Notes under the pieces: model-generated
Seen by the model: the letters and a program-made list of their open reading frames with translations, nothing else
What the model was told of the DNA's origin: nothing
Databases searched by the model: none
In this document: positions 3,012-59,400 of the stretch, in pieces
Numbering within the stretch: position 1 is the stretch's first letter
Layout: each line of letters starts with the position of its first letter
Program-made: the position numbers and the translations under genes
DNA from: Sphaerolaimus hirsutus
Taxonomy: Eukaryota > Nematoda > Chromadorea > Monhysterida > Sphaerolaimidae
Assembly: GCA_964036195.1 (NCBI GenBank)
Contig: OZ038457.1
Location: forward strand, 22,905,147-22,969,146
Reading direction: 5' to 3'
Length of the DNA: 64,000 bases

Positions 3012-3242
3012 TAGTGATGTAAAAAGCGCCAGGATTTTAGCGCCATGGCGCTTTTCAAAGTCCAGCGCCAAGCGCCAATGGCGCCACAACAAAATAGCGC
3101 CAAGCGCCAAAAGCGCCATGGCGCCTTTCCAGACCAGGGCGGCAAGCGCCAATGGCGCCAGGAGGCTATGGCGCCAAGCGCCAATGGCGCCAGCGCCAAA
3201 ATATTTTTCCAGCGCCAGCGTCATGGCGCTTTTACATCACTA
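3012..3242. mobile_element. hAT-like MITE made of GCGCCATGGCGC repeats
   Basis: The element runs from TAGTGATG to CATCACTA and is flanked by the exact 8-bp duplication GTCGCAAG (3004-3011 and 3243-3250). Almost the whole body consists of the self-complementary unit AGCGCCATGGCGCT and variants, so a single strand could fold extensively. Relatives lie at 3592-3869 and 33418-33463. There is no coding capacity; long frames through it are artefacts of the repeat. Confidence 0.88.
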
Positions 3243-3591: not shown

Positions 3592-3869
3592 CAGTGATTT
3601 AAAAGTGCCATGGCGCTGGCGCTAGCGCCAAAGCAAAAAGCGCCATGGCGCTTTTGGCACTTGGCGCCTTTTTTCCGTGGGGCTATTGGCGCTTGGCGCT
3701 GGGGTTTGGAAAAGCGCCATTGCGCTTGGCGTTATTTTTGTGTGGCGCCAGGAACAAAACGTCTGGCGCTGGCGCTTGGCGCCATGGCGCTTCTGGCGCT
3801 TGGCGCTGAGGGTCGAAAAAGCGCCATGGCGCTTTTGGCGCCAAATTCCAGGCGCTTTTCACATCACTA
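3592..3869. mobile_element. hAT-like MITE made of GCGCCATGGCGC repeats, second copy
   Basis: It runs from CAGTGATT to CATCACTA with the exact 8-bp duplication CATTTGAC at 3584-3591 and 3870-3877. It is the same family as 3012-3242, with a different number of GGCGCTTGGCGC units. It inserted into older TGTAAAGTGTCAAATG repeat DNA (3245-3430 and 3880-3980). Confidence 0.88.
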
Positions 3870-24610: not shown

Positions 24611-24810
24611 TGGCGCGCTACATACATTGGATGTCAACTGGTGACTAAGTCAATTCAGAGTTTAGTTGACAGGCCGCGAAATTTTTTTCAAGTGTCGAAA
24701 AGTAATCAATCATTTGAACATCGTTCTGCAACAAATCAACTAAAATCTGAATGGAAACTAGTCGGCCCAGTTGACACCCGACATAATTGTCAACTAGTGC
24801 GTTTAGGGCC
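24611..24810. mobile_element. GTTGACA-family MITE abutting the stop codon of the CBM48 gene
   Basis: GGATGTCAACTGGTGACTAA on the left is mirrored by TGACACCCGACATAATTGTC and TCAACTAGTGCGTTTAGGGCC on the right. The right terminus GGCC ends at 24810, which is also the last base of the TAG stop (24812-24810, minus strand). The element therefore supplies the start of the 3' untranslated region. Confidence 0.6.
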
Positions 24811-27800
24811 TATTCAACGACACGCCAATTGTTATCCGAGCCCCAGTCATTCGCGCAGCGGTCGTACTGATCGCTGGTGCGCCACTCGCCGTCCACGTAG
24901 AAGCGGAACTCGTACCTGCGGGCGGGAAATGACCGCTTTTTGAGACATAAGTTTTGTCGCGCACGCGTCGATGAGTAAAATGAGTTAAAATAGATAGGGC
25001 GGCGACATTTTACGGACTATGCAACTGGTCGATGTCGATGATGTGATATACGGAAAAATGCTCGAAAAAATGTGCCAGGTAAAAAATGCGAACGTACCGG
25101 CCGCGAGGCAAGTCGATCCAGACGCCGTGCTTGCCGTGCGGGTGCATGGTGCACATCATGGCGCACTCCCAGTTGGTGAACGACCCGGTCAGGTACACCT
25201 GCGCCATAGACACGTTTATATACGCAGTTACACGTGTATATGCACACAAACAAGTTTACTATCAGTATACTCTGGTAAACTAAATCTGGTATACACATAA
25301 GTTGACTTTGGATGGGATTTGAGTACGCTGGTATTATGTTTTCGTTAACTACAGTTGACGGAGAGTAAATATAACACATTCCAGTCAACTGAAATGTGTT
25401 CAAGGCTGATTAACGAGTTGACAAATTTTTTAAACTTCATTGCTAAACTTGTCTGTGCAGCGACAATGCAACGGCATAACTGTCACATCAAAAGCAAACC
25501 TGTCTCGAATGCGGCGCGTCCAGTTCAAACCAAACCCGCTGCACGCTATCTTCCACTTTGTCGTCGCTTTCCCTGCGAAATATAATAAAATTAATTTTTA
25601 ATAAAAAAGGCTCGGCGCCAAAAATTGCGACAGCAAAAGAACGCCGGAAAAACGGACAACATGCTCAAAGTCCATTTATTTCTGTCCACATAGGGTTCCT
25701 TGCGAATCAGGAAAGCGTCGCCCTGCGAAAGTTGCCGGTGCACGCGACCCTTGAAATCGTTCAGCTCGCGAACCCTGCAATGGGATGTAAAATCGGATGG
25801 AATGAAAACTGGATGGTAATAATCATTATTGGTTAAGTCGGATGGCGTTTGGACGATATATCGTAACGAATATCGACTATTTTTTCATATCGGATATCGA
25901 TATCGATATCGATGATTTTGGAAAATATCGAATTATCGATTACAAGGGCTATTCTTTACTACGATCCTTATCGAAAATTTATGAATTATGTACCTCCACG
26001 AATAAAACCCCCCTCAAAAGTAACTGGCAAAATAACAAAGCCCCGGTGGCATTTCGAGGACATACGGTACAACAAACTGCCCCCCCAATCACTCACATAT
26101 GCTCCAGTTCCAATATGCGCTCATGTTTCGCGTCGCACTCGCCCTGCAACCAGTTGATGTGGTTGTCCTTGTCGCCGCAGGTCGCGTGCGCCCTGTGGAG
26201 CTCCGGCTCCAACTGCGCCTTGCGCTCGTTCGCCAGCCACAGCTGCTCTTCCAGCTGTTTGACGTACGTTTGAGCGTCCTCGCTCGCTGGCTCGGGGGAG
26301 AGTCTGGGGGGGGGTTGTTTGAGGGTAATTACGTCGCATAATTAAGCCCCTTATAATGACCAGAGCACAACCGACACTGCGCTCTATAAGAAAGGCGCGG
26401 TGTTCGATTCCCGCCTGTAGCAGTGCAAATTTTGCATTCTTTGTTATGTTTGAATTCCCAGGGCTACACACACGCGCTTTCAAGGTGTTGGTCTTCAGAA
26501 AGTTGAACAGCCGGTAAAGCATTGTTTTTTTCGTTTATATCCTCATCACCTATCCGTTTCATAACGACAAAATGTCGTTAAGCGAAAACAAAAACACGAC
26601 AAACTGGTTTTCCAATTCGAGAATCCTTTGGTGCTTGGCGTCGCACTCGCCCTGGAGCCAGTTGATGTGGTTGTCTTTGTCGCCGCAAGCGCCGCGCAGA
26701 CCGTCCACCTGCAGCCAAAGTGCATTGTGGCCTGTGGGCTGGCAGAAGTGATGGAAAATCCCCGGAAAAAGAGCGCCAGACCCTCGAATGGCGCCATTCT
26801 ATCACTAATTGGCAGTAAAATTCTTAAATAAAATGAAGGTGTTTGCACACGAGCGACGCCGACCACGTAAAAAAAATATTTTAAAAAACATTTTCAACCA
26901 AAATCCACTAACCTCTCCCTCCAGGAGCGCCTTTCTCTCATTAGCAGCCCACAACTCCTCCTCCAGCTTGTGCACCTTGTGCTGCAGCTCGCCGGAGTGC
27001 TTCTGCTCCTTGTCGAGCTTGGACGAGAGCTCTTTGCACTGCGCTTCCAGCTCGAACTTGCGCTGAGCCGAGCGACGCAGCTCCCCGGACAGCTCGTCCG
27101 CCTGAGTGGGGGAGGGGGAGTTTTTTGGGTCGCTGGCTGGTGGGGGTTTTGTAGGGGGGGGGGGGGGTTGACAGTACTAAGACCTATTTACTTATAAAAT
27201 ATCAGTGTGATGGAAAAATGCGAGAAAATGGGTTTACATGTGCATCGGCACAGGGCCATTCAGAACAGCCCACTGCGTTAATTACCAAATGCAAGTGTAG
27301 GTCTTGCCAGTGTAAATAAATACTCGAGCTTCTAAAGTAAATATATAGGTATTCCTCGAGCGCAAAACACACAACAAAGTTGACACCACCTGCACACTAG
27401 CGCGGCGCTCCACGTCCTCGCTGGTGCCGTTCTTGCCGCTGTTGCTGTGGTGCAGCTGCTGCTCCACGTGCCGCAGACGCGAGTGCGCCTCGCCGCAGCT
27501 GCGCAGTTCACACAACTGTCGCTAGGACACTTCAAATATTGTAGATTTATCACTCAGGTGGCAAACGTTCCATTAAATTTTCCCACTTTACTCTCGTTTA
27601 GTTTCGAGTTTTTCTCCAAAAATCCCCAATCCCGGCAACCAAACAAAAAATGCAAAAAAACGTAAAATCGCGAACCGGGCATTGGCCTCATCGAGCTCCT
27701 TCTGGACGTGTGCCAACTGGCCGGCCAGATCATCCAAGGCAGCTTGCTTGGCATTCACGTCAGCCTCCAACTCGCCCACTCTGAGACGCGAGCGAAGATT

Positions 27801-30800
27801 GTTCGGTGATAGGGTGGGGAACGGTACGGATTTGCGGTAAACGGTACGGTAAATACCAAAATTTGCGGTATGGTATGATAAATAGACGAATTTTCGGTAC
27901 GGTACGATGGATTCTGCCAGTATGAAAGAAGGTTCTACTTAAATGTAAGCTACCTCCATTGGCTGCCGTCGGCGCGCTTATTGGCCTCGCCCAAGTCGGA
28001 TTCCAGTTGTGAAGTTCTGAAAAAGGGCACACGATGGAGATAAATATGTATTGGTTTGTAAAGACGTAAACATTTACCTTTCGCGAAGGCGTCCAATCTC
28101 GTCCACTACATTGTGCAGCTGGTCGAGCCTGAAAAGTCTTTCAACAATTAATGACCAGCAAATATTACACACAAAAACAGTTGACGTTTTCAGTTGACGG
28201 CTCAATAAAACGGCAAACAAAAACCGTCAACTGACCTGTCCTTCATCTCCTGGTTGGCGTTCTTCTGGTGCGCCAGCTCGGCCTTGAGCTGCGCTTTGCG
28301 CTGCGACAGCGTATTGACGCGCGCGCGCAGTTCGTCGCCGTTGCCCGCGCCGTTCTCGCCCGGCGGTGGCGCAGCGCTGCAAACGACCCATTGAAATGGA
28401 GTCAATTAGAAACGTGGTATTTACATGCTGCATTGTGTTCAAACGGGATCCCGATCCCGAATCCCGAAAAATTTCGGGGTTTTGCAGTCCCGAACCCGAA
28501 CCCCCAATCCCGATCCCGGTTCCGAAAAGTCAGTCCCGTTTTAACCCTAATGTACACGACAATAGCAGTAGCGGGGGGGGGGGGGGCTATTATTTAATGT
28601 CTCGAAAACGGATAATCAGCGGTGCTATTTGAAAAAATGAAATGCCGGGAACGGTTATTCGAATATCCTAACTGCCTGTAAAATGTCCTGCAAAGTGTTA
28701 AATGTCATGTGAACTGTCAAATTTAATTGTTTGACATTTTTATCACATTTTACATTAATTGACTTTTTGCATAACATTTTACATTTTTCAGGCAGTTTAC
28801 AACCTCTGGGAGTGAGCCCCGTGAGAACCCCCCTAAACAACAACCACAAACCTCTCCTGTTGCACAGCGACCGCCTGCACCATGGGCTCCTCAACCACGG
28901 CTTGTTCGTCAGTGTGTTTGTCCTGTTCCAACTTGGCTTGCAGCTGGTCGACCAGGTGCTCGGCTGCGGAGAGGGCAATCTCCCTGCCCTCGGCCTCTGC
29001 GCGCGCCCTGTCCAACTCCCGCTGGACATCGTCGCACCTGTGCAAGATTTTCAAGGTGTCCAGGGGGTCTCCAGTTAGGGGAGTGGGGGTGGGTAAAGAT
29101 GAGCCCCATGAACGCTACCAGATATCTATCGCAAGCGGCGCTCATCAGCTATCTATACCCAGGCAAAAGTTGTGGTTACTACTCTCCGTTGTACGATTCC
29201 GCAATAATCTTCACTCAAAGTTGCAAACTTATCATCGATCACTCTAAATTGACAATTTTTGTAAGTTTTCTGCCTGCAAAATCGCCATTCGTTATGCCTT
29301 TTAAGCGCTACACAAACTATTGCCTATTTTCAGCAATACTATATCTCCAGAGGAGCGATCTCCTATATTCTGCTGTACCTTGACCCACGAAAATGTTTTC
29401 AAATAAAATCACATAAATATAGTTACCGCGCATTAGCTTCGTTGGTGGCGTCGTTGGCGCGCTGCAGCTGCCCGTTCAAGTCGTCGATGATCCCGTTCTT
29501 GGTGCCCATCTCGGACTCCAGCTCGCCGACCCTTGAAAACAGGTCAGTGATTGGTTAGTTGAATGAGCAGACAGTGTAGCAAGTCTAAGTCAATGCCCTT
29601 CACACACTAGTTGACAAATGTCAACTGACACCAAATGTCAACTGGTTCCCATTCAAAGCTTGCTATTCAAAGCTTGCTGACGAGTAACGCTTCGCATTCT
29701 AACGTTTCTAACGAGTAACGTTTTCTCGTCACTTGCCAGTTGTCTTTTAAATTTTTTTTACTTTTAATCCTACTTATCACTTAAAAAATCACTTTTCGTT
29801 TAAATTTTCACTTCTCAGTTCTAAATTTTTTATTTTTACTTCGCAGCATTCAAAATTGGCACCAGTTCAAGCGCACCTCCACTGTGCGTCGTTGGCGCAC
29901 TTTTGGACGTCTGCCAGCCGGATGTTCAGGTCGTCGATGGCGCTCTGCTTGCCGTCGCATTCCGACGTCAGCTCGCCCAACCTGATAATGTCGTGATAAT
30001 TTCGGGTGGTGATGGACAAACATGTTTTTAAACCGTTTTTTTCCTTAAAAAATCGTCTAAAGGTAAGGTCACTTGACTAAATTGATAATCAAAAATTCAG
30101 TTGCCGTTTTTTACTGGTTTAGATGTTGTTTTTAAACTGAAGTCATCCCCAATTGTGACTAACCGCCATTGGGCATCGTCGGCGCGCTTGGTGGCCTCGG
30201 CCACTGCACCCTCCAGCTCTGGCACCCTGCAAACACAACGCAAGTGTGATATATGATTAAAAACACCACAAATGCATGCATGTGGTAGTCCCGCACTCTG
30301 TGAAGTGTCATTTAAAATGTAAAATTTCACGCACAATGTCATACAAAGTTGATCGAATGTCCTGTCAAATGTTAAAAGTTAAAAGATAAAATCATTCATT
30401 TTTTTAAAATTTTGATTGACACTTTACATGACATTTGACAATTGACGCGGCACTTTTACAGGGTTCATGACTACAACACGGGGCACCCAAAGTGACCTCT
30501 GCGCGGCGCCATCAGCCTGTCCGGCGGCGTTTTTCAGCTTCTCGTTTTCCAGTAGCAGCTCGGCCACCTGGCTTTGGGCCGCTTCCAGCTCCAGCGCCAT
30601 CTTGTAGCGGTGCTGATCCTCGCGCCCGCGCAGACGGTCGTTGCTGCGTTTTTGGGGTGCCGTTGGATGGTTGCCAAATGGCAAGAAAGGTGTCTTCGAT
30701 GTTTCAAGTAAGTCAAGTGGACAGGTGATGAGAAAATGTGACAAGTAGTATGTGGTTGAAAGTGACAAGTAAACTTGCAGGCTTACAGCAGTTTTCTAAG

Positions 30801-33800
30801 CAACAAGTATTTTTTTGTCATTCCAAGTTGACTTGTCATTTGACTCAGCACTTTGATTGACCGATCACTTACCACCACTTTTATTGCCACTTATCCACTG
30901 GCTGAATAGAGACAGCAGGGATGTCGGCCCGCGGCGGACAAAATGGAGCCCCCCCCCCCAGAATCATTAGACATTTATTTCTATTCGGATCCCAACTAAT
31001 CTAGTTTCTCAAAACGCTCGCGGCTGGCTTGCAAAAAAGTACAAGTTGACTTCCCACATCGAAAAATTCAAGTTGACTTCCCAAATCGAAAAATCCAAGT
31101 CGACTTCCCACACCAAAAAAAAACTGTCAAAAAACGGACCTCTCCTTAACCTTGCGCAGCATTTGCTCCAGCTGTCTAATCTTGATGTCCTTGTCATCGA
31201 GCATGATCTTTTGGCTCGCAGCGTCCTGTTCCGAATGCTCCGAGGAGTTTCGCTCCACGGGCATTGGCTCCGCAGCCATTGGTTCCGCGGGGGGCGGAGC
31301 CTAAAAAATAGGTGCCGAGGGTTTACAAATGGGGATGGTAAATACGACTAAAGGCTAGTTTCAGCTACTTATTTGCCGTATATCGGGCGAAGTAGCCCCC
31401 AGGGGGTTTATTTTGTCGCGACAAGTTGGGGACGGGGGTAATTTGACATGTTTTTCGTCAGACTTGAAAGTTAAATTTATTGTGTTAACGTATTCGTATA
31501 TTAGAACTTTTCAGAAGCCTGACTTTCATTGTTGGCCGATTCATTGTATAAGGGCGGTTAATTCGAGTATAAACGACATCCATTCATGCAAAGGCCAATC
31601 CCCCGTGGATGAAACGAAACACTCACATTGGGACTGACAGATTCTGGCGGCGGGGCGGCACCCAGCTGCGTCTGCAGCACGCGCATCAGCTCCTTCTCGT
31701 CGCCTGCGCAATGCCAATTGTTGTAGTTGGTTGAACTGACTACAAAATGTTCAATCAACTGCTACACGATGATACAATTTTCAGGGATCGAGTTAAAACG
31801 ACCCGACAGTCTTCTCGGGTAGCCCGACGGGCAGGGGTATCTTGAATATCGACCCTCTCTGAGTGGTTGGATAGCAAATCGCTCCTTCAGAGGGATAGAT
31901 AGCTGAAAAATTTTCTGGGGGGGGGGTTTGGGGGGGTTGTGGTGGTTCGATATATAGGCTTTTTCTGCGCATAGAAGGAAGAAAAGGAAGAAAAATCGCT
32001 AAAAGTAGCTGTAAAATAGCTTAAAAATGGTATACAGGAGCATTTAGAACTAAAAATAGCTGAAAATAAGCAAATAGGAACCAGAACTATGATTTTGGAA
32101 GTTAAAATCTATACAACGATATGAAAAATAGCGATTTTGAGCTAAAATTGGGGTATAGTTTCTCAAAAATCGCTCCAGATAGGTAGATTTAAGGGTTTAA
32201 GGGGTACTAGCCCAAAATTGTGCCTCCGGGATAGATAGATAGCTGAGCGGCCTCCGGGATAGATAGATAGCTGAGCGGCCTCCGGGATAGATAGATAGCT
32301 GGGCGGGTTTGGGGGGGGGGTAACCCCCCCCCCCCATTCGAGACCCCTGCCGACCGGAAAAGGATGTACCAAAAAAAGCGGGTGCGCGGAAAAGCATCGA
32401 TCCAGTAAATTTCGGGCCGGCCCTGGAAGCCACTCCCAGACCCCGTAAAATGTCATGAAAAATGCAAAACGAAGGGTAATTACAAAATAAATTTCGAAAC
32501 TTTACAGGGCACTTTATACACGACATTTGACACTATACATGAAATTGACATTTTCCAGGGTCCGATCAGAACACAGACCTGGGACGAGCGACTGCACGCC
32601 GGGCAGGCCCATGCCGGCGAGCATCTTGTAGACGAGCTCGACGCTGTCGCGGAACTGCTTCGTGGCCGCCTGGTACCTGTCGTAGGACTTGACGTCGCGC
32701 CACGCGTTGTCCACCGGGTAGACTGCGGCGAGTTTCGGGTGCGATTATTTACGTTGTGCTGATTTGGGTCAGAAAAGTGTCCAGGTTTTGTTCATGGACC
32801 CCCCTCTAGGGACATACACTCGGCGGACCGCAAGGTGTGCGCCCAAAATTACTTATGTCTTTGTCAACAATGAGCGAGTGCGATACGTATTTATGTATAC
32901 ACGTTCTTAAAAATATTTAAAAAAGAACAAAGGCGGAGTCGAGCACATCCAACCAATGTTAAGTGTCTAAAATCATTTTTTGAAAGAATTTTAATTATTA
33001 TTAATGATGTGATGGAGTTTCATTCAGAAATTTGCATAGCATGCGGTCCGCGGAGCATAGTAAAAGTGAAAATACAACAGCCCTCCCCCAACGAACAGAA
33101 AGAAACATAATAACGGCTAGCCGCGTTCCATCCGCCGGACGGCGGGAAAAGTTTCGTCGCGCCGCTATCGACGCTGCAAAAAAGAGATCACATCAAAACA
33201 AAGCCTCATAATGACAACAACACTGGCACCATGCCAACTAGACAACCAACTCGACAGCGACCCTCCTCCTGTCGTTGTCGTAGAACCACAGGCCGGAGGC
33301 GCCGGGCAGGGCCGACCTGATGGTGGCTAGGTTGATGGACCCGTCGCTGCCGATCGGGCAGTGCACCGGTTCGGTTGTGATCGTCAAAGTGTCTGTGTTG
33401 TGATTTTGGGTGGTGGGTAGTGATGGAAATAGCGCCAAGCGCCATGGCGCTTTCCGATCACTAGTGGTGGGCATTTTTGCATGTGCAAAATGGACTTTGG
33501 AGAATTACAGCCGTGTTTTTGAGAGTTGGTTACAGGGAGATTGTGTTCGAACTTCGAAGACCTGTTCGGAGTTTCATAAATTTCTTTCCTTTTCGGTGAT
33601 TGGTAAGGAATGGCGCTGCGCGCACTGTTTTACTGCCGATAAAATAAAAATTTGGTAAACTCATAAACCAACTTTTAATGACATTTAAATTTACAGAATG
33701 TCGGTGTTCGTTAAGTACACTTCTCGGGGAGTAAAAATAACCCATTCAAGCAAATTCAAGTGAGTTCAATGCTGATATATGAGTTTACCAAATTTTCAAA

Positions 33801-34432
33801 ATTTCATTGACAAAAAACTGTGTGCAGCGACAGTGTGCGTCCAGTAGACCAGCCAATAGGCGCGGCAAGCCGTACGGCTTTGAAGTAAAACTTTTGCCGT
33901 ACGTTTTGCCACCCTGATCGCCAGAAGAATGGGTCGAGTCGATAAAATCACGTCAAAGGCAACGTCAAATTTGGCCCACATAAATTTAGTTGACATCAAA
34001 ATTAGTGTCAACTAAATTTAGGTTAACTTGTGATTTAACCTTTCCCATGTGATCGAGCATAATCGATTTTAACCAGTGACACCGTTTTCGTTGTTTCTGT
34101 TGTGTGATGCTTTTGAGAAATTTCTAGTTGACATACAGTTGACACGAATTTGCAATGTCAACTAGTGATTGAGCGCGAAGCAAAACTAAACCAACCAGCA
34201 TGATGCTCGGTATTGTGACTTGCATCCATGAATCCACTTTCTTCCATGTCGCCTTTCTCGTCAACTATCTGCTCAAAATCGTAGAAATCTTTCGTTAAAC
34301 AGTCGCTTGACTCAGTGCACCGGTTTTCGCTCGAGTCGAGACTCAGCCCGGCGCAATTTTTCAAATTTTCTTCAGATTTTGGGGGGCTATCGCAATTTTG
34401 GTCGGCTGGCAACCGGCAGCCGATTTCCGTGC
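24810..34432 (-). CDS. TDP-43-NTD-like / coiled-coil / CBM48 protein (23 exons, 5' end missing)
   Basis: Exons on the minus strand: 34432-34196, 33392-33251, 33173-33097, 32722-32579, 31703-31627, 31300-31140, 30643-30497, 30226-30164, 29981-29877, 29531-29427, 29037-28852, 28376-28236, 28128-28078, 28016-27954, 27780-27676, 27498-27390, 27101-26913, 26708-26605, 26303-26097, 25774-25661, 25572-25500, 25198-25098, 24915-24810. All have AG acceptors and GT donors. Every phase agrees, and together they give 934 residues plus a TAG stop. Residues 1-78 are acidic. About 80-165 resemble the TDP-43 N-terminal domain, about 255-830 are coiled coil, and about 850-930 are a CBM48 domain. The initiator Met is not in the first exon listed, which begins in phase 1, so at least one more 5' exon is needed. 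The predicted role is an oligomerising, glycogen-binding scaffold in the cytosol; that is inference from the domains. Confidence 0.85.
24816..25535 (-). other. Coding segment for a CBM48 (AMPK-beta-type) glycogen-binding domain
   Basis: Exons 25572-25500, 25198-25098 and 24915-24810 encode WFELDAP, VYLTGSFTNWE, GVWIDLPRG and YEFRFYVDGEW, ending with DNNWRVVE. AMPK beta has the same order (VSGSFNNW, LDLPEG, YKFFVDGQW, NN). The two tryptophans that stack on glucose in AMPK beta are both present (NW and DGEW). The lysine of YKFFVDG is Arg here. The domain closes the protein, as in many CBM48 scaffolds. Carbohydrate binding is likely; ligand preference cannot be told. Confidence 0.88.
26355..26440 (+). 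repeat. Possible tRNA-derived remnant (B-box-like)
   Basis: GCGCGGTGTTCGATTCCCGCC at about 26396-26416 matches a Pol III B box and can form a T-arm-like stem. A weak A-box-like GACCAGAGCACAACCG lies about 40 bases upstream. A full cloverleaf does not form well by eye, so this looks like a decayed tRNA or tRNA-derived SINE head in an intron of the CBM48 gene. Confidence 0.3.
28437..28555. mobile_element. Short ATCCCG-repeat element remnant
   Basis: TTCAAACGGGATCCCGATCCCG at the left and TTCCGAAAAGTCAGTCCCGTTTTAACCCTAA at the right match the ends of the hAT-like elements at 56663 and 60173. The interior is mostly deleted. It lies in an intron of the CBM48 gene. Confidence 0.6.
31832..32349. 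mobile_element. hAT-like MITE, CAGGGGT family with ATAGATAGC repeats
   Basis: It starts CAGGGGTATCTTGAA and ends TTCGAGACCCCTG. The flanks CCGACGGG (31824-31831) and CCGACCGG (32350-32357) match at 7 of 8 positions. Inside are three tandem copies of CTCCGGGATAGATAGATAGC at 32223-32303. It lies in the intron between the exons at 31627-31703 and 32579-32722. A second copy in opposite orientation lies at 54211-54716. Confidence 0.82.
32690..33392 (-). other. Coding segment for a TDP-43 N-terminal-domain-like fold
   Basis: Three exons (33392-33251, 33173-33097 and the start of 32722-32579) encode this domain. The pattern is a charged strand TEPVHCPI, GSDGSINLATIRSALPGASG, LWFYDN, then LFPPSGGWN and YYVSFFYPVDN. 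The TDP-43 N-terminal domain as I know it has the same order: PIEIPTEDDG, LLSTVTAQFPGACGL, LHAPDAGWGN and VVNYPKDN. In TDP-43 this DIX-like domain self-associates head to tail. The match is by eye; the GxW and YPxDN positions make it more than compositional. Two of the donors used (GTTGGT, GTTCGT) are weak. Confidence 0.7.
33418..33463. mobile_element. Minimal 46-bp hAT-like MITE (GCGCCATGGCGC)
   Basis: TAGTGATGGAAATAGCGCC at the left and GGCGCTTTCCGATCACTA at the right enclose almost no loop. GTGGTGGG is duplicated exactly at 33410-33417 and 33464-33471. It is the smallest member of the family at 3012 and 3592, and it lies just upstream of the acceptor for the TDP-43-like exon. Confidence 0.8.
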
Positions 34433-49700: not shown

Positions 49701-52700
49701 GCCTGGGATGGGCATATTTATTATGCACTTTCGACAAGAAAGTCACTATTTTACTGGTGGACTTTGAACTTACGACACGAAAACGTGATTTTATGAAATA
49801 TGTAACAAAGTATCGGAAACAACGTGGACTATAACGTGAATGTTTTCTAAAACGTGCAAAACGATGTGTGCACGCCAAATCCACGTTCAAACCGATTGTT
49901 ATGGATTTGGCGCTTATGCACTTTTGGGATGAAACTATTCGATTAAAAAGAACACAGAACCAAAAACAAACATATTCGTCATGCCACGGCGCAGGCGGCT
50001 GGTCGGTCAGTCTCTTAAAATAGAAACGGTACACCATGAAGCCGCTCAGCCCGCGCTCAAAATCATACTTTAATAGTTCATAAAGTCCTGCGCAAAAATA
50101 CCGCAATTTTAAAAGAAAATAGAAACACGAATAGTTAAAAATCAACACCAAACTAGGATGTCAAATTGTTTTACGGAAAACGGAAAGTTTAAAATCCTCC
50201 CTCAGAAACGTTGACACCTTCACCAAAACCGACCATCGTATCTAAACCCCCTTGGGGGTGCTAAATCTTGCTTCCTGCACTTGTAACCTCTGATAACCCT
50301 CACAGGCCGTTTAGTGTCCGCATTCAGGCTCAGTGCCAAATTCCGTCCAATGAGGGCCTGAGATCAATTCTACTAGTGCTAAAAATTATTAAAAAAACAT
50401 CTTAGAAGTGAGAAGTAAGAAGCTATTTAAGTCAATCTAGAAGTGAAAAGAGAAATGAAAAATAACAGGCATTAAAAGTTTTATATTTTTAAGCTTTTCA
50501 TTGTCACTTGCCATTTGTTTTGTAACATTTCTTGTAACTTCCACTTCTAAATGAATTTTTACGTCTCTACTAGCGGAACTGGCACCTGGTCGTGTGTCTG
50601 GGGCCCGGTGCGCAGGTTCTTGGGGTTGGAGGGGGTGCCCTTGAGGGAGCGGCCGCCGCTGCCGGTCATGGTGAACACGTCGCCGTGGTCGATGTCGTCC
50701 TCGTAGCCCCCGTTCAGCACCACCGCGTAGGCGCCCTGGGGGGGGGGGGGGTTAGTGGGTCGAGTTATAGATCTATCATGACGTCTAAATTGTTGGCGTT
50801 AGCGCCCATGTCCCACTCCCAGGCATGTAAGATGTGAAATGCAAATTGACAAGTCATGTGAAATTCCCATAAAAATGACAAATTTGACTTTTTTAAACTA
50901 AGTCGTTTGGCATTTTACAGGAAGTTTTATATTTTACAGGACGATTTTGACACCATGCATGACATTTGACATTTTACTGGATACGTCCTTGAGTAAAAGT
51001 TAAGAGCAAAAGTCGAGTGAAATATGAACTGTACCAAGAATTTGAAACTTGACGTCACTTTACACGGAAAGCACTAGGGATGGCAAGCGCTTTTTTTCAA
51101 GCGCTTTTTTTTTTAAAAAACGCCGCTTTTTTTTAAAAAAAAGCGCAAGGGTCCCAGCGCGTTTTTTTAAAAAAAAGCGCTGGCAAAAATTTTAGTACTC
51201 ATGCACTAGGTATTTTCATTTTGCAAATTTTTTTGCGCGCAAGCGCATAATGTCACATGCAAATTGCCAAATTGGTGGTTGTTTTCATTGGTTTTGTACC
51301 ATTTTAGTGGCATTGCTCCTATTCCTGCATGGTATTATGTAATAAAAAGTTGAGGAGATATGTCAGTGTAGTAAATAATATCCAGCCAATGTGCTTCCAC
51401 TCTTCTACAGTGTGAAACATCACTGTCATGTATTAGCCATTTTTTATAGCCAAATTTAAGCACTATTCCATGCCTAACTTCACGTGCAGTCAAGAAACAT
51501 TCAAATAGGGCGATATACATAATTATTCGACATAAAATTGAAATTTTTTTGGCAGAAAGCAGCACTTATAATGCTATCAGATGATTACATAGCCATTGTA
51601 TGGTTATATATCATCACAAGTACTGTCACTTGTCTGATATACCTGCATATATTGACTCAGGACCATATTTGGGAGCTTTTAAGGTAACGTCGTGACAATT
51701 TTTTAAAAAAAGCGAAAAAAGCGCGTTTTTTTAAAAAAAAGCGCGTTTTTTAAAAAAAAGCGGGTCCGTTAAAAAAAAGCGCTTTTTTTCCATCCCTAGA
51801 AAGCACTCACAAGACTATATTTCCAAACAAATAGAGGAAAATAGATTTTCAATTAAAAAAAAATTACCTCGTCGCTGGTGGAGATGCCGGCGCAGGTCTC
51901 GTACTGCATGCCCGCCCAGCGCATCTCCTCGTAGCAGTAGAACAGGAAACCCACTGGCACGCCTGCGAGAAAATCGCCATTCGTTCACCATTTCCGAAAA
52001 AAATCAACGCCACATTCCCCTTCTTAAGTGTCATATTTAGACACAAATTTGGAACCATTAGAAACATTCTTCCGAAAATCTGTATCAAACGGAAGATTTG
52101 GAACTTTACGATTGCACGGCAGCCCACTGGACACGCATTGCTTGCAGAAAATTGACTTAAATTTTTTTTATCGATATCAACTTATCGGGGTTATCGACAT
52201 TTAAAAGTAAACACCTCATTTACATTCAGCCCACCAAAAACCCACCCGGAATGTGTCCAAAAATCTTCTGCCTGCCCTTCACGGGCCTGGCAAACCGAAA
52301 GTAATGCGTATCAGTCATGATGGGCTTGTTGTAGGCCCAGATGTCGTCCAACTCGGTGCCGTCGGAGAAGCGGTAGGGCGTGTGCGCAGACGGCACCCAC
52401 GTGCGGTCGCCTGAGCGGCGAGGTGAGAGAATGTGGTTATATATAGTGGTCTAGGGGTGATTTGATGTTTTTCTAAGGTTTTCCTCCCTTTTCTGCCTTT
52501 TATACATTGACAGCCCCCCAGTAAAAATGAATTTTTACAGATATTTGTCTGCCTCAGGGATTTAGTAGGGGGGGGGGGGGTTGGGGGGGGGGGTTACCCC
52601 CCAAATCCGCCAGCTATCTATCTATCCCAGAGGCCCGCTCAGCTAACTATTTACCCCATAGGCAATTTTTTGGCTATCTATCCCCAAAATCCTCTGATTT

Positions 52701-56410: not shown

Positions 56411-59400
56411 ATGTCAAGTGGGATATCAGATTATTCCCTGAGTTTCATCGCGATTATTTTCGCACTGACTACCCGATGGGCATGTTCACTTGGGCCATAT
56501 TCCGGTATATCCAATTTGTTGGCAACTTGCCCACTCAAATTCTTGCGAAATTGTCGATTTATTTTTTGGTCAGGTGCTGGCAAAGTTCCAATGTTCGGCG
56601 ATTTCGAGGCACAGCGACATTGGATGGAGATTACGTATCATCTGCCCGTCGATGACTGGTATTAAGGGTTCAGACGGGATCCCGATCCCGGATCCCGTGA
56701 AATTCCTGGATTTACCAGTCCCGATCCCGAAACCCCGATCCCGAAATCTCAAAAATACCAATCCCGATCCCGAAAGTTTTCAAATTCCGATCCCGATCCC
56801 GAGAAACTCCCAAGTCCGGGATCCCGATCCCGGAAAAATAAGTGGAAATTATAAAAAAAGTGAAATAATGACGTTTTTGCATGCAAAAAAAGTGGATGCA
56901 AACCCCCAGCGTCAATTTTATGCCACTTTTCTGGCATCCAACAGTGTTTTGAGACCTTTATGAACAACTGTGAATGCCAGAAACATGGCCAAAATCTCTT
57001 TCCCTAGAACCCAATCCCGATCCCGGAAAAATGCCTATCCCAATCCCGATCCCGTGACCCCAATCCCGGCCAATCCCGATCCCGATCCCGAAATCTCAAA
57101 AAAACAATCCCGATCCCGAAACCCCAATCCCGATCCCGATCCCGAAATCTCAAAAAGTGAATCCCGATCCCGAAAAGTCAATCCCGTTTGAACCCTACTG
57201 GTATTGTCGATTTTTCTTCTTCCATGTGTATTTTGGCATGTTGCCAGCAATTTTTTTTGTCAATTTCCAGGTATCGAAACACAACTGAGAATGACCTTCA
57301 GTACTGGGGCTTGGATTACCCGCCACTGACAGCTTACCACAGCTTTTTGATGGGTGCAATGTGAGCTATTTCAAAGGTTTCACATAATTAAACCTGTTTA
57401 CCTATTCTGTGTGTTTTTTTCAGCGCGAACAGATTTAATGAAACATGGGTCTCGTTGGGTGACTCCAGGGGTGCAGAAAGTCCACAGCTGAAAATTTTTA
57501 TGCGCACTACGGTGTTTGTCTGCGATCTACTATTCCTGCCCGCGTTAATGTATTTCTGCAGCAAAATTAAAGGGCCGCATAAGTGCCATTGGGTTGGTGG
57601 GCGGAGTTTTGTTTGGATGATTTTACAAGTTTTCTTATGATGTTACTTTTTCAGACACTTCTGGCTTTCACCATGATGCAGTACCCTGGTTTTATTCTCA
57701 TTGATCATGGACATTTTCAGTTAGTTCATCAATTTGTCGCAATTGTCAAACCATATTCGGTGCCAATTGGGGAGTTCCATTCTAAAAGTTCACAAGCGCC
57801 AAATCCAGAAAAATCGAGTTAAGCGTGGATTTGACCTCCACCTATAGTTTTTCACATTTTAGAAAAAAAATCAGCGTTATTGTCCATTTCGTTCCCGAGA
57901 TACAGTGGTACCGTTTTTCAGAAAAATCACAATTTTCACATCGAAAGTGCACATATCCATCTCAGATCCCCTATGAAAAAGAGGACTTTCATTTCGTGAT
58001 GTGATTCGTTTTATCCTACGATGCACCGTTAAGAAGTTATTAACCATTTAATTTCAAATGTTCAGATTTGTTCCCAACTTTGGGTGACTTACAAAATCTC
58101 ACATAACTCCCTAAATATTTCCCGGCCAACAAAATTTGTCATTACAAAAATCGTAGAGAAATGTCGGATCTATCTGAAAAGTGCGGGGAAAGCGTCGTCC
58201 CCCAAACATACCGTCGTCGGGCCAGCGTCAAACTTAAAAATGCGATTTTGAAAAATCGAAAAACTTGGATATATGCATTTTTAGAATTTTTTGTGTTTTA
58301 ATTTTCAAATTCTCAAACTTTAACTTTTATTAATTTTAATTCAAATTTTATTAAAATCAAATCATTCAACTGTGCTCATTAATTTGCAGTTTTGTTAAAT
58401 TTCAGTTTTCCCACGAAGTCACGGTGAAAACTAGTGTGTGTAGGCACATTGACCCCAAATACACGACCACTTTTTGCAGGTACAATAATGTCTCACTGGG
58501 TTTTTTTGCGTGGGCTATGATTTTTCTTTTAACAAACAGGGACCACCTGTCATGCTTCTTTTTTGTGTCCGCGCTCAACTACAAGCAAATGGAATTGTAC
58601 CATGCGCTACCATTCTTCTGTTACATGTTGGGCACCTGCTTGAATAGGAGTTCAATTTTCTCCAAGTTAGTGTACATTTTGAAAATTCCTTTTCGTTAAA
58701 AGCATATAACGCTGGCCATAATTGTTCTGTTTTTAGAAAACATTAGGGATGCCACTTGATTTTTGAGTCTGAATCTGAGTCTCAGATATTTTCAAAAAAG
58801 TAAATTCTTATCCTCCACTAGATCCGTAGCAAGGGCGTACGCAGGAGGGGGGGGGGGCGGGGGGGCGGCCGCCCCCCCCCTGTTCCCGGGCCGGCCATAA
58901 AAAATTTGCTAAGAATGGCACTTTTGTAAAGCGATTTTGTAGGTACTTTGAAAATTTTTTGGGCGCAAGCGCGCAAACCACAACCTGTTGTTTAATGTAT
59001 AAGTTCAGGAGTCTAACCAGCATTATAAAAGTTCCCAACGTGGTCATAGTAACTATATATAGGTCTTAATAGATACCTATATAGTATACGTTGGCGCCAG
59101 CGCCAACGCCAATACTGCCATGGCGCTGGCGCCTACAAATGGCGCCAGCGCCATGGCTCCATTCCTTTACTATAGGGCCAAATTTTAGGGGGGGGGCGCC
59201 GCCCCCCCCCCCGTTCGCCGGGCTCCGTATACAATCCGCCCCCCCCCCGCTCAAAAATCCTGCGTACGTCCCTGATCCGTAGTGAAACATCACTCAATGT
59301 AGGGATGGAAAACCTTTCTCCACACGATTCCATTCTTATAATGACTGTCTGCAACTATCCTAATCAGAGTCGTTTTAATTTTTTGCTTAAAATATCACCT

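What the first reader, a model, noticed from the sequence alone, without database searches (positions are those of the whole stretch)
24810..34432. A protein joining a TDP-43-like N-terminal domain, a coiled coil and a C-terminal glycogen-binding domain
Seen: 23 exons whose phases all agree encode, in order, an acidic tail, a region with the strand pattern and key motifs of the TDP-43 N-terminal domain (GSDG, PGASGL, PPSGGW, YPVDN), about 575 residues of coiled coil, and a CBM48 domain with both glucose-stacking tryptophans. Known: the TDP-43 domain self-assembles; CBM48 domains in AMPK beta and in plant PTST proteins bind glucans, and PTST proteins also pair a coiled coil with CBM48. Inference: this could be an animal scaffold that multimerises on glycogen. 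I know of no described protein with this architecture.
Basis: partly seen in the sequence, partly recalled or inferred. Interest (0 to 1): 0.88.

Follow-up and report, generated by a model that had tools for sequence, protein, structure and literature searches.

The report
TDP-43-type domain on glycogen-binding coiled coil
A eukaryotic gene appears to encode one long protein that joins a self-assembly domain known from TDP-43 to a coiled coil and a glycogen-binding domain, which suggests an undescribed kind of glycogen scaffold.

Summary
On the minus strand, 34432-24810, 23 exons joined by 22 GT-AG introns give a 934-residue open frame. Pfam finds TDP-43_N (56.2 bits, cut-off 27.1) and AMPK1_CBM (63.7 bits, cut-off 26.8). 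Exon 2 alone and exon 23 alone, unspliced, already pass these cut-offs; 0 of 10 shuffled or reversed controls match anything. No RRM or AMPKBI match appears, so it is neither a TDP-43 orthologue nor an AMPK beta subunit. The middle shows heptad periodicity in about four stretches. Two internal copies differ at 10 codons silently and 1 by amino acid, of 26.

Function is inferred. Three of four glucan-contact residues of AMPK beta are identical; the fourth is K to R. But two acidic residues that TDP-43 needs to polymerise (E17, E21) are H and G here, so TDP-43-style polymerisation cannot be assumed. The start codon was not found. Homologue, own-genome and fold searches could not be made, so spread is untested. 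Eight text searches on this point listed no paper naming the architecture. Best reading: a PTST-like multivalent glycogen tether, a new variant of a known kind.

The parts
34196..34432 (-). Exon 1: residues 1-79, acidic segment (20 D/E, 6 K/R in the first 80 residues); acceptor at its 5' side, start codon not found; Met62 and Met68 are internal candidates
33251..33392 (-). Exon 2: first half of TDP-43_N (alone 39.3 bits, cut-off 27.1)
33097..33173 (-). Exon 3: second half of TDP-43_N (PPSGGW); its donor is the least certain choice
32579..32722 (-). Exon 4: YPVDN end of TDP-43_N, then a segment with no Pfam match
31627..31703 (-). Exon 5: start of Pro-rich linker
31140..31300 (-). Exon 6: Pro-rich linker into coiled coil
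30497..30643 (-). Exon 7: coiled coil, 49 codons (7 heptads)
30164..30226 (-). Exon 8: coiled coil, 21 codons (3 heptads)
29877..29981 (-). Exon 9: coiled coil, 35 codons (5 heptads); similar to exons 10 and 15
29427..29531 (-). Exon 10: coiled coil, 35 codons; similar to exons 9 and 15
28852..29037 (-). Exon 11: coiled coil into linker
28236..28376 (-). Exon 12: Pro/Gly-rich linker, then coiled coil
28078..28128 (-). Exon 13: coiled coil
27954..28016 (-). Exon 14: coiled coil, 21 codons
27676..27780 (-). Exon 15: coiled coil, 35 codons; similar to exons 9 and 10
27390..27498 (-). Exon 16 (corrected acceptor): coiled coil into a Ser/Asn/Gly-rich break
26913..27101 (-). Exon 17: coiled coil, 63 codons (9 heptads)
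26605..26708 (-). Exon 18: CGDKDNHINWLQGECDAKHQRILELE repeat, copy 1
26097..26303 (-). Exon 19: corresponds to the end of exon 17 plus exon 18 in one exon (repeat copy 2)
25661..25774 (-). Exon 20: end of coiled coil
25500..25572 (-). Exon 21: segment leading into the CBM48 domain
25098..25198 (-). Exon 22: CBM48, GSFTNW (position of AMPK beta1 W100)
24810..24915 (-). Exon 23: CBM48, RFYVDGEW (K126 to R, W133 kept) and GSDNN (T148 to S, N150 kept), stop codon

Best explanation
One gene encodes a protein of about 870-930 residues or more. Shown by sequence: a TDP-43-type N-terminal domain, a segmented coiled-coil-like middle built partly by duplication, and a C-terminal AMPK-beta-type CBM48. 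Inferred: the coiled coil makes the protein a dimer or higher oligomer, so that the CBM48 domains grip glycogen with avidity at one end, while the TDP-43-type domains at the other end link molecules to each other, or to a partner with the same domain. The protein would thus tether or cross-link glycogen particles and recruit partners to them, as PTST does for starch in plants.
For: Pfam matches well above curated cut-offs, reached by exon 2 alone and exon 23 alone, with 0 of 10 controls matching. PDB sequence matches to TDP-43 NTD (E=0.00081) and AMPK beta1 (E=1.3e-8). Glucan contacts W100, W133 and N150 kept and K126 to R; these four are named as critical in PMC4032982 (passages). Heptad periodicity at or above the 97th percentile of 300 shuffles in 22 of 65 windows, 20 of them starting between residues 295 and 785. 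Constraint on the closest internal copies: 10 silent against 1 replacement codon in 26. PTST precedent: coiled coil plus CBM48, with W217/W255 (aligned with W100/W133) together needed for starch binding (PMC4339375, passages).
Against: E17 and E21 of the TDP-43 tail interface are H and G here and Q34 is A (alignment); E17A/E21A abolishes TDP-43 NTD oligomerisation and E17R disrupts self-assembly (PMC5830921, passages). The effect of K126R is unknown. No transcript, structure model or orthologue alignment was available. Coiled-coil oligomer state was not predicted, and 16 of the 36 windows between 295 and 785 fall below the 97th percentile. One older pair of internal copies shows dN above dS.
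Confidence: 0.5

Rival explanations
1. The protein is a glycogen-bound coiled-coil adaptor, but the TDP-43-type domain does not polymerise. It serves as a one-to-one docking module for a partner (possibly TDP-43 itself or another protein with a similar fold).
For: Tail-interface acids E17 and E21 are lost while fold motifs (PGASGL, PPSGGW, YPVDN) and the family score are kept.
Against: E14 is kept and an RRR run lies near the head positions, so a modified head-to-tail contact is possible; the alignment in beta4 is ambiguous.
Confidence: 0.27
2. A structural coiled-coil protein (cytoskeletal or Golgi type) whose CBM48 has lost glucan binding and works as a protein-binding beta-sandwich.
For: Most of the length is coiled-coil-like, with sub-threshold similarity to crescentin, tropomyosin and ATG16 models; K126 is replaced.
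Against: Both stacking tryptophans and N150 are retained; the piece scores better against AMPK1_CBM (63.7 bits) than against generic CBM_48 (25.9 bits).
Confidence: 0.13
3. Two neighbouring genes read as one: a TDP-43_N gene and a coiled-coil/CBM48 gene.
For: No transcript evidence; AATAAA motifs lie in introns 5, 6 and 9; the introns after exons 1 and 4 are the longest (803 and 875 bases).
Against: No in-frame stop and no gap over 875 bases between exons 1 and 23; frames continue through exons 4-7 with GT-AG sites, though I chose those sites; the exons are G+C-rich throughout (0.49-0.71).
Confidence: 0.07

Closest known systems
TDP-43 (TARDBP), N-terminal domain PF18694
   Same: The N-terminal fold module: 24 identical of 70 aligned residues to the solved chain 5mrg (alignment, count); the domain sits near the protein's N-terminus
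   Different: No RRM found by Pfam (up to E=1); a coiled coil and CBM48 follow instead; tail-interface E17, E21 and Q34 are replaced
AMPK beta subunit, CBM (PF16561)
   Same: The CBM48 module: 21 identical of 64 aligned residues to the beta-1 chain of 6c9f (alignment, count), glucan-contact residues mostly kept
   Different: No AMPKBI (alpha/gamma-binding) domain found by Pfam; the CBM is at the extreme C-terminus
PTST (plants)
   Same: Coiled coil followed by a C-terminal CBM48 with both tryptophans (PMC4339375, passages)
   Different: PTST is plastidial and, as described there, has two recognisable domains only, so no TDP-43-type domain; here the coiled-coil-like part is much longer (recalled); PTST sequences were not compared
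Bacterial CBM48 proteins (L001, 101 aa; L002, 494 aa)
   Same: CBM48 at about 35% identity
   Different: No long coiled coil or TDP-43_N by eye; general family relatives only

Membership tests
TDP-43 (TARDBP) orthologue | TDP-43_N domain | tested here: met
   56.2 bits, cut-off 27.1
TDP-43 (TARDBP) orthologue | Two RRM domains | tested here: not met
   No RRM match up to E=1 in the assembled protein
TDP-43-type NTD polymer former | Acidic tail E14/E17/E21 | tested here: not met
   E14 kept; E17 to H, E21 to G (alignment; roles from PMC5491494, passages)
TDP-43-type NTD polymer former | Basic head R52/R55 | tested here: inconclusive
   RRR run nearby, but the alignment there is ambiguous
AMPK beta subunit | AMPK1_CBM domain | tested here: met
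   63.7 bits, cut-off 26.8
AMPK beta subunit | C-terminal AMPKBI domain | tested here: not met
   No such match up to E=1; the protein ends with the CBM
CBM48 glucan binder | W100, K126, W133, N150 equivalents | tested here: met
   W, R, W, N: three identical, one conservative (residues named in PMC4032982, passages); binding itself not tested
PTST-type protein | Coiled coil plus C-terminal CBM48 | tested here: met
   the coiled coil by periodicity only
PTST-type protein | Plastid targeting and starch-synthase docking | not testable with these tools
   N-terminus unresolved; no partner data

The most novel reading that the evidence does not exclude
An undescribed family of animal proteins in which a DIX-like TDP-43-type domain polymerises head to tail and thereby builds a multivalent lattice on glycogen, making the TDP-43 domain a mobile assembly module used outside RNA biology.
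Probability: 0.25. Interest if true: 0.82.

Novelty: new variant of a known kind. Interest (0 to 1): 0.62.

Why it matters
As far as I know (recalled), the TDP-43 N-terminal domain is studied almost only in TDP-43, an RNA-binding protein linked to ALS. A second architectural context would help show which of its residues serve the fold and which serve polymerisation, and would offer a natural comparison set. A PTST-like coiled-coil/CBM48 protein outside plants would also give a candidate for how glycogen particles are organised or tethered.

Tried and rejected
Coiled-coil-type Pfam scores rose with it (crescentin 21.8 to 33.0, tropomyosin 19.2 to 27.2, ATG16 23.2 to 28.1 bits; all below their cut-offs), but the protein also lacks the first 61 residues, so the comparison is not clean.

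A shorter form of exon 3 (ending before RYYVSF) scored 53.4 bits for TDP-43_N to profile position 71 in an 84-residue piece, against 56.2 to position 74 for the longer form in a 94-residue piece. I kept the longer form, but the margin is small and the pieces differ in length.

A search for a first exon with a start codon gave many weak candidates (best 25 printed) and no clear one.

The PDB sequence search with the middle part alone gave no match at E 0.01. A scan of genome contigs with the CBM matched 35 stretches and confirmed 3 loci: L001 and L002 read as bacterial CBM48 proteins; L003 lies in a frame that reads like an aldehyde dehydrogenase (my reading of the translation) and is rejected as a relative.

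No tRNA and no Rfam family at gathering score were found in the window.
Full report
What is there. In the final model all 22 introns are GT-AG and the joined frame is open for 934 codons to a stop. Because I chose the splice sites to make the frames meet, phase agreement is weak evidence alone; the independent evidence is what the exons encode.

The two end domains. Given as pieces, Pfam reports TDP-43_N (PF18694) at 3.3e-15, 56.2 bits against a cut-off of 27.1, covering profile positions 9-74 of 74, and AMPK1_CBM (PF16561) at 1.9e-17, 63.7 bits against 26.8. In the assembled draft they score 50.7 and 58.6 bits, and in the corrected model without its first 61 residues 50.8 and 58.7. Exon 2 alone, read straight from the genome, reaches 39.3 bits for TDP-43_N; exon 23 alone reaches 29.3 bits for AMPK1_CBM; exon 22 alone (17.6 bits, below the cut-off) covers the profile stretch just before exon 23's. 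Of 10 shuffled or reversed versions, 0 matched any family up to E=10 (the tool notes that its filters drop most matches above about 0.1). By sequence, solved TDP-43 N-terminal domains match at E=0.00081 at best and AMPK beta1 at E=1.3e-8. Identities are 24 of 70 and 21 of 64 aligned residues.

The middle. Between the domains lie a Pro-rich linker and then stretches with 3.5-residue hydrophobic periodicity. Of 65 overlapping 42-residue windows along the draft, 22 are at or above the 97th percentile of 300 shuffles; 20 of these start between residues 295 and 785 (20 of 36 windows there), and two lie outside the coiled-coil part (29-70 and 127-168). The strong windows fall into about four stretches, with breaks near 450-500 (Pro/Gly-rich), 605-645 (Ser/Asn/Gly-rich) and 715-755 (Pro-containing). 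No dedicated coiled-coil predictor was run. Several exons are whole numbers of heptads (21, 35, 49, 63 codons), others are not (17, 47, 62). Internal copies exist: exons 9, 10 and 15 resemble each other, and exon 19 corresponds to the end of exon 17 plus exon 18. In the best pair, of 26 codons 10 differ silently and 1 by amino acid (dS could not be computed, dN 0.06). Over the longer 53-codon pair 16 change silently and 14 with replacement (dN 0.21, dS 2.7). Three more diverged pairs gave dN, dS of 0.53, 1.40; 0.43, 2.28; and 0.65, 0.42, the last being against constraint. The closest pair supports a translated, selected frame.

What it is not. No RRM and no AMPKBI domain was found in the assembled protein up to E=1, so it is neither a TDP-43 orthologue nor an AMPK beta subunit.

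How it could work. Glucan end: W100, K126, W133 and N150 of AMPK beta1 are named as critical (PMC4032982, passages). W100G and K126Q abolish, and W133L weakens, glycogen binding by the isolated CBM (PMC6274970, passages). From the printed alignment the window protein has W, R, W and N at these places; the residue numbering put on that alignment is recalled and fits the spacing of the named residues. Binding is therefore likely but not shown. Assembly end: TDP-43 NTD forms head-to-tail chains through tail residues E14, E17, E21 and Q34 and head residues N45, R52, R55 and N76, with S48 in the contact; E17A/E21A or R52A/R55A abolish oligomerisation (PMC5491494, passages). S48E, Y4R and E17R also disrupt it (PMC5830921, passages). 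Here E14 is kept, but E17 is H, E21 is G and Q34 is A; an RRR run lies near the head but the beta4 alignment is ambiguous. TDP-43-style polymerisation is thus possible but not to be assumed. The coiled coil would probably give oligomers in any case (inference). The nearest working analogue is PTST, where a coiled coil binds granule-bound starch synthase and the CBM48, through its two tryptophans, meets starch (PMC4339375, passages).

What is known. Eight of the ten text searches bore on novelty. None of the papers held both TDP-43 and CBM48 (0 papers), or 'TDP-43 N-terminal domain' with 'glycogen-binding domain' and 'coiled coil' (0 papers), or set phrases for a TDP-43-like N-terminal domain elsewhere (0 papers). 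Searches for the Pfam and InterPro names (33 papers, 20 listed, 13 listed), for CBM48 with coiled coils and animals (4 papers, 3 listed, 2 listed) and for CBM48 with Drosophila (16 papers, 15 listed) gave listings in which no title or abstract start named such a protein. Of these listed papers I opened only PMC4339375 (passages). The library lacks most subscription papers, and protein databases could not be searched, so unnamed database entries with this architecture may well exist.

Limits. 

Noticed in passing
window 50583-50738 (-), 51868-51969 (-): Exon-like pieces of an SRA domain: SAD_SRA 36.0 bits, cut-off 30.7, for the first; the second gave only a sub-threshold match (13.3 bits, joined there to another piece). 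Probably a UHRF-type gene upstream on the same strand; that name is recalled, not tested.
   Followed up: partly
window 32197-32320: Short tandem repeat (units around gatagatagctgagcggcctccgg), seen by eye, inside the intron between exons 4 and 5.
   Followed up: no
window 3024-3230, 3689-3843, 59090-59167: Low-complexity stretches that stay open in several frames on both strands and read as short WRQ-, GAMA- or LALA-like repeats.
   Followed up: no
L001 4953-5258 (+): A 101-aa bacterial protein consisting of little more than one CBM48-like domain, in a Syntrophaceae metagenome-assembled genome.
   Followed up: no
L002 4542-6026 (+): A 494-aa bacterial protein that appears to carry several CBM48-like repeats in tandem (repeats seen by eye).
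   Followed up: no
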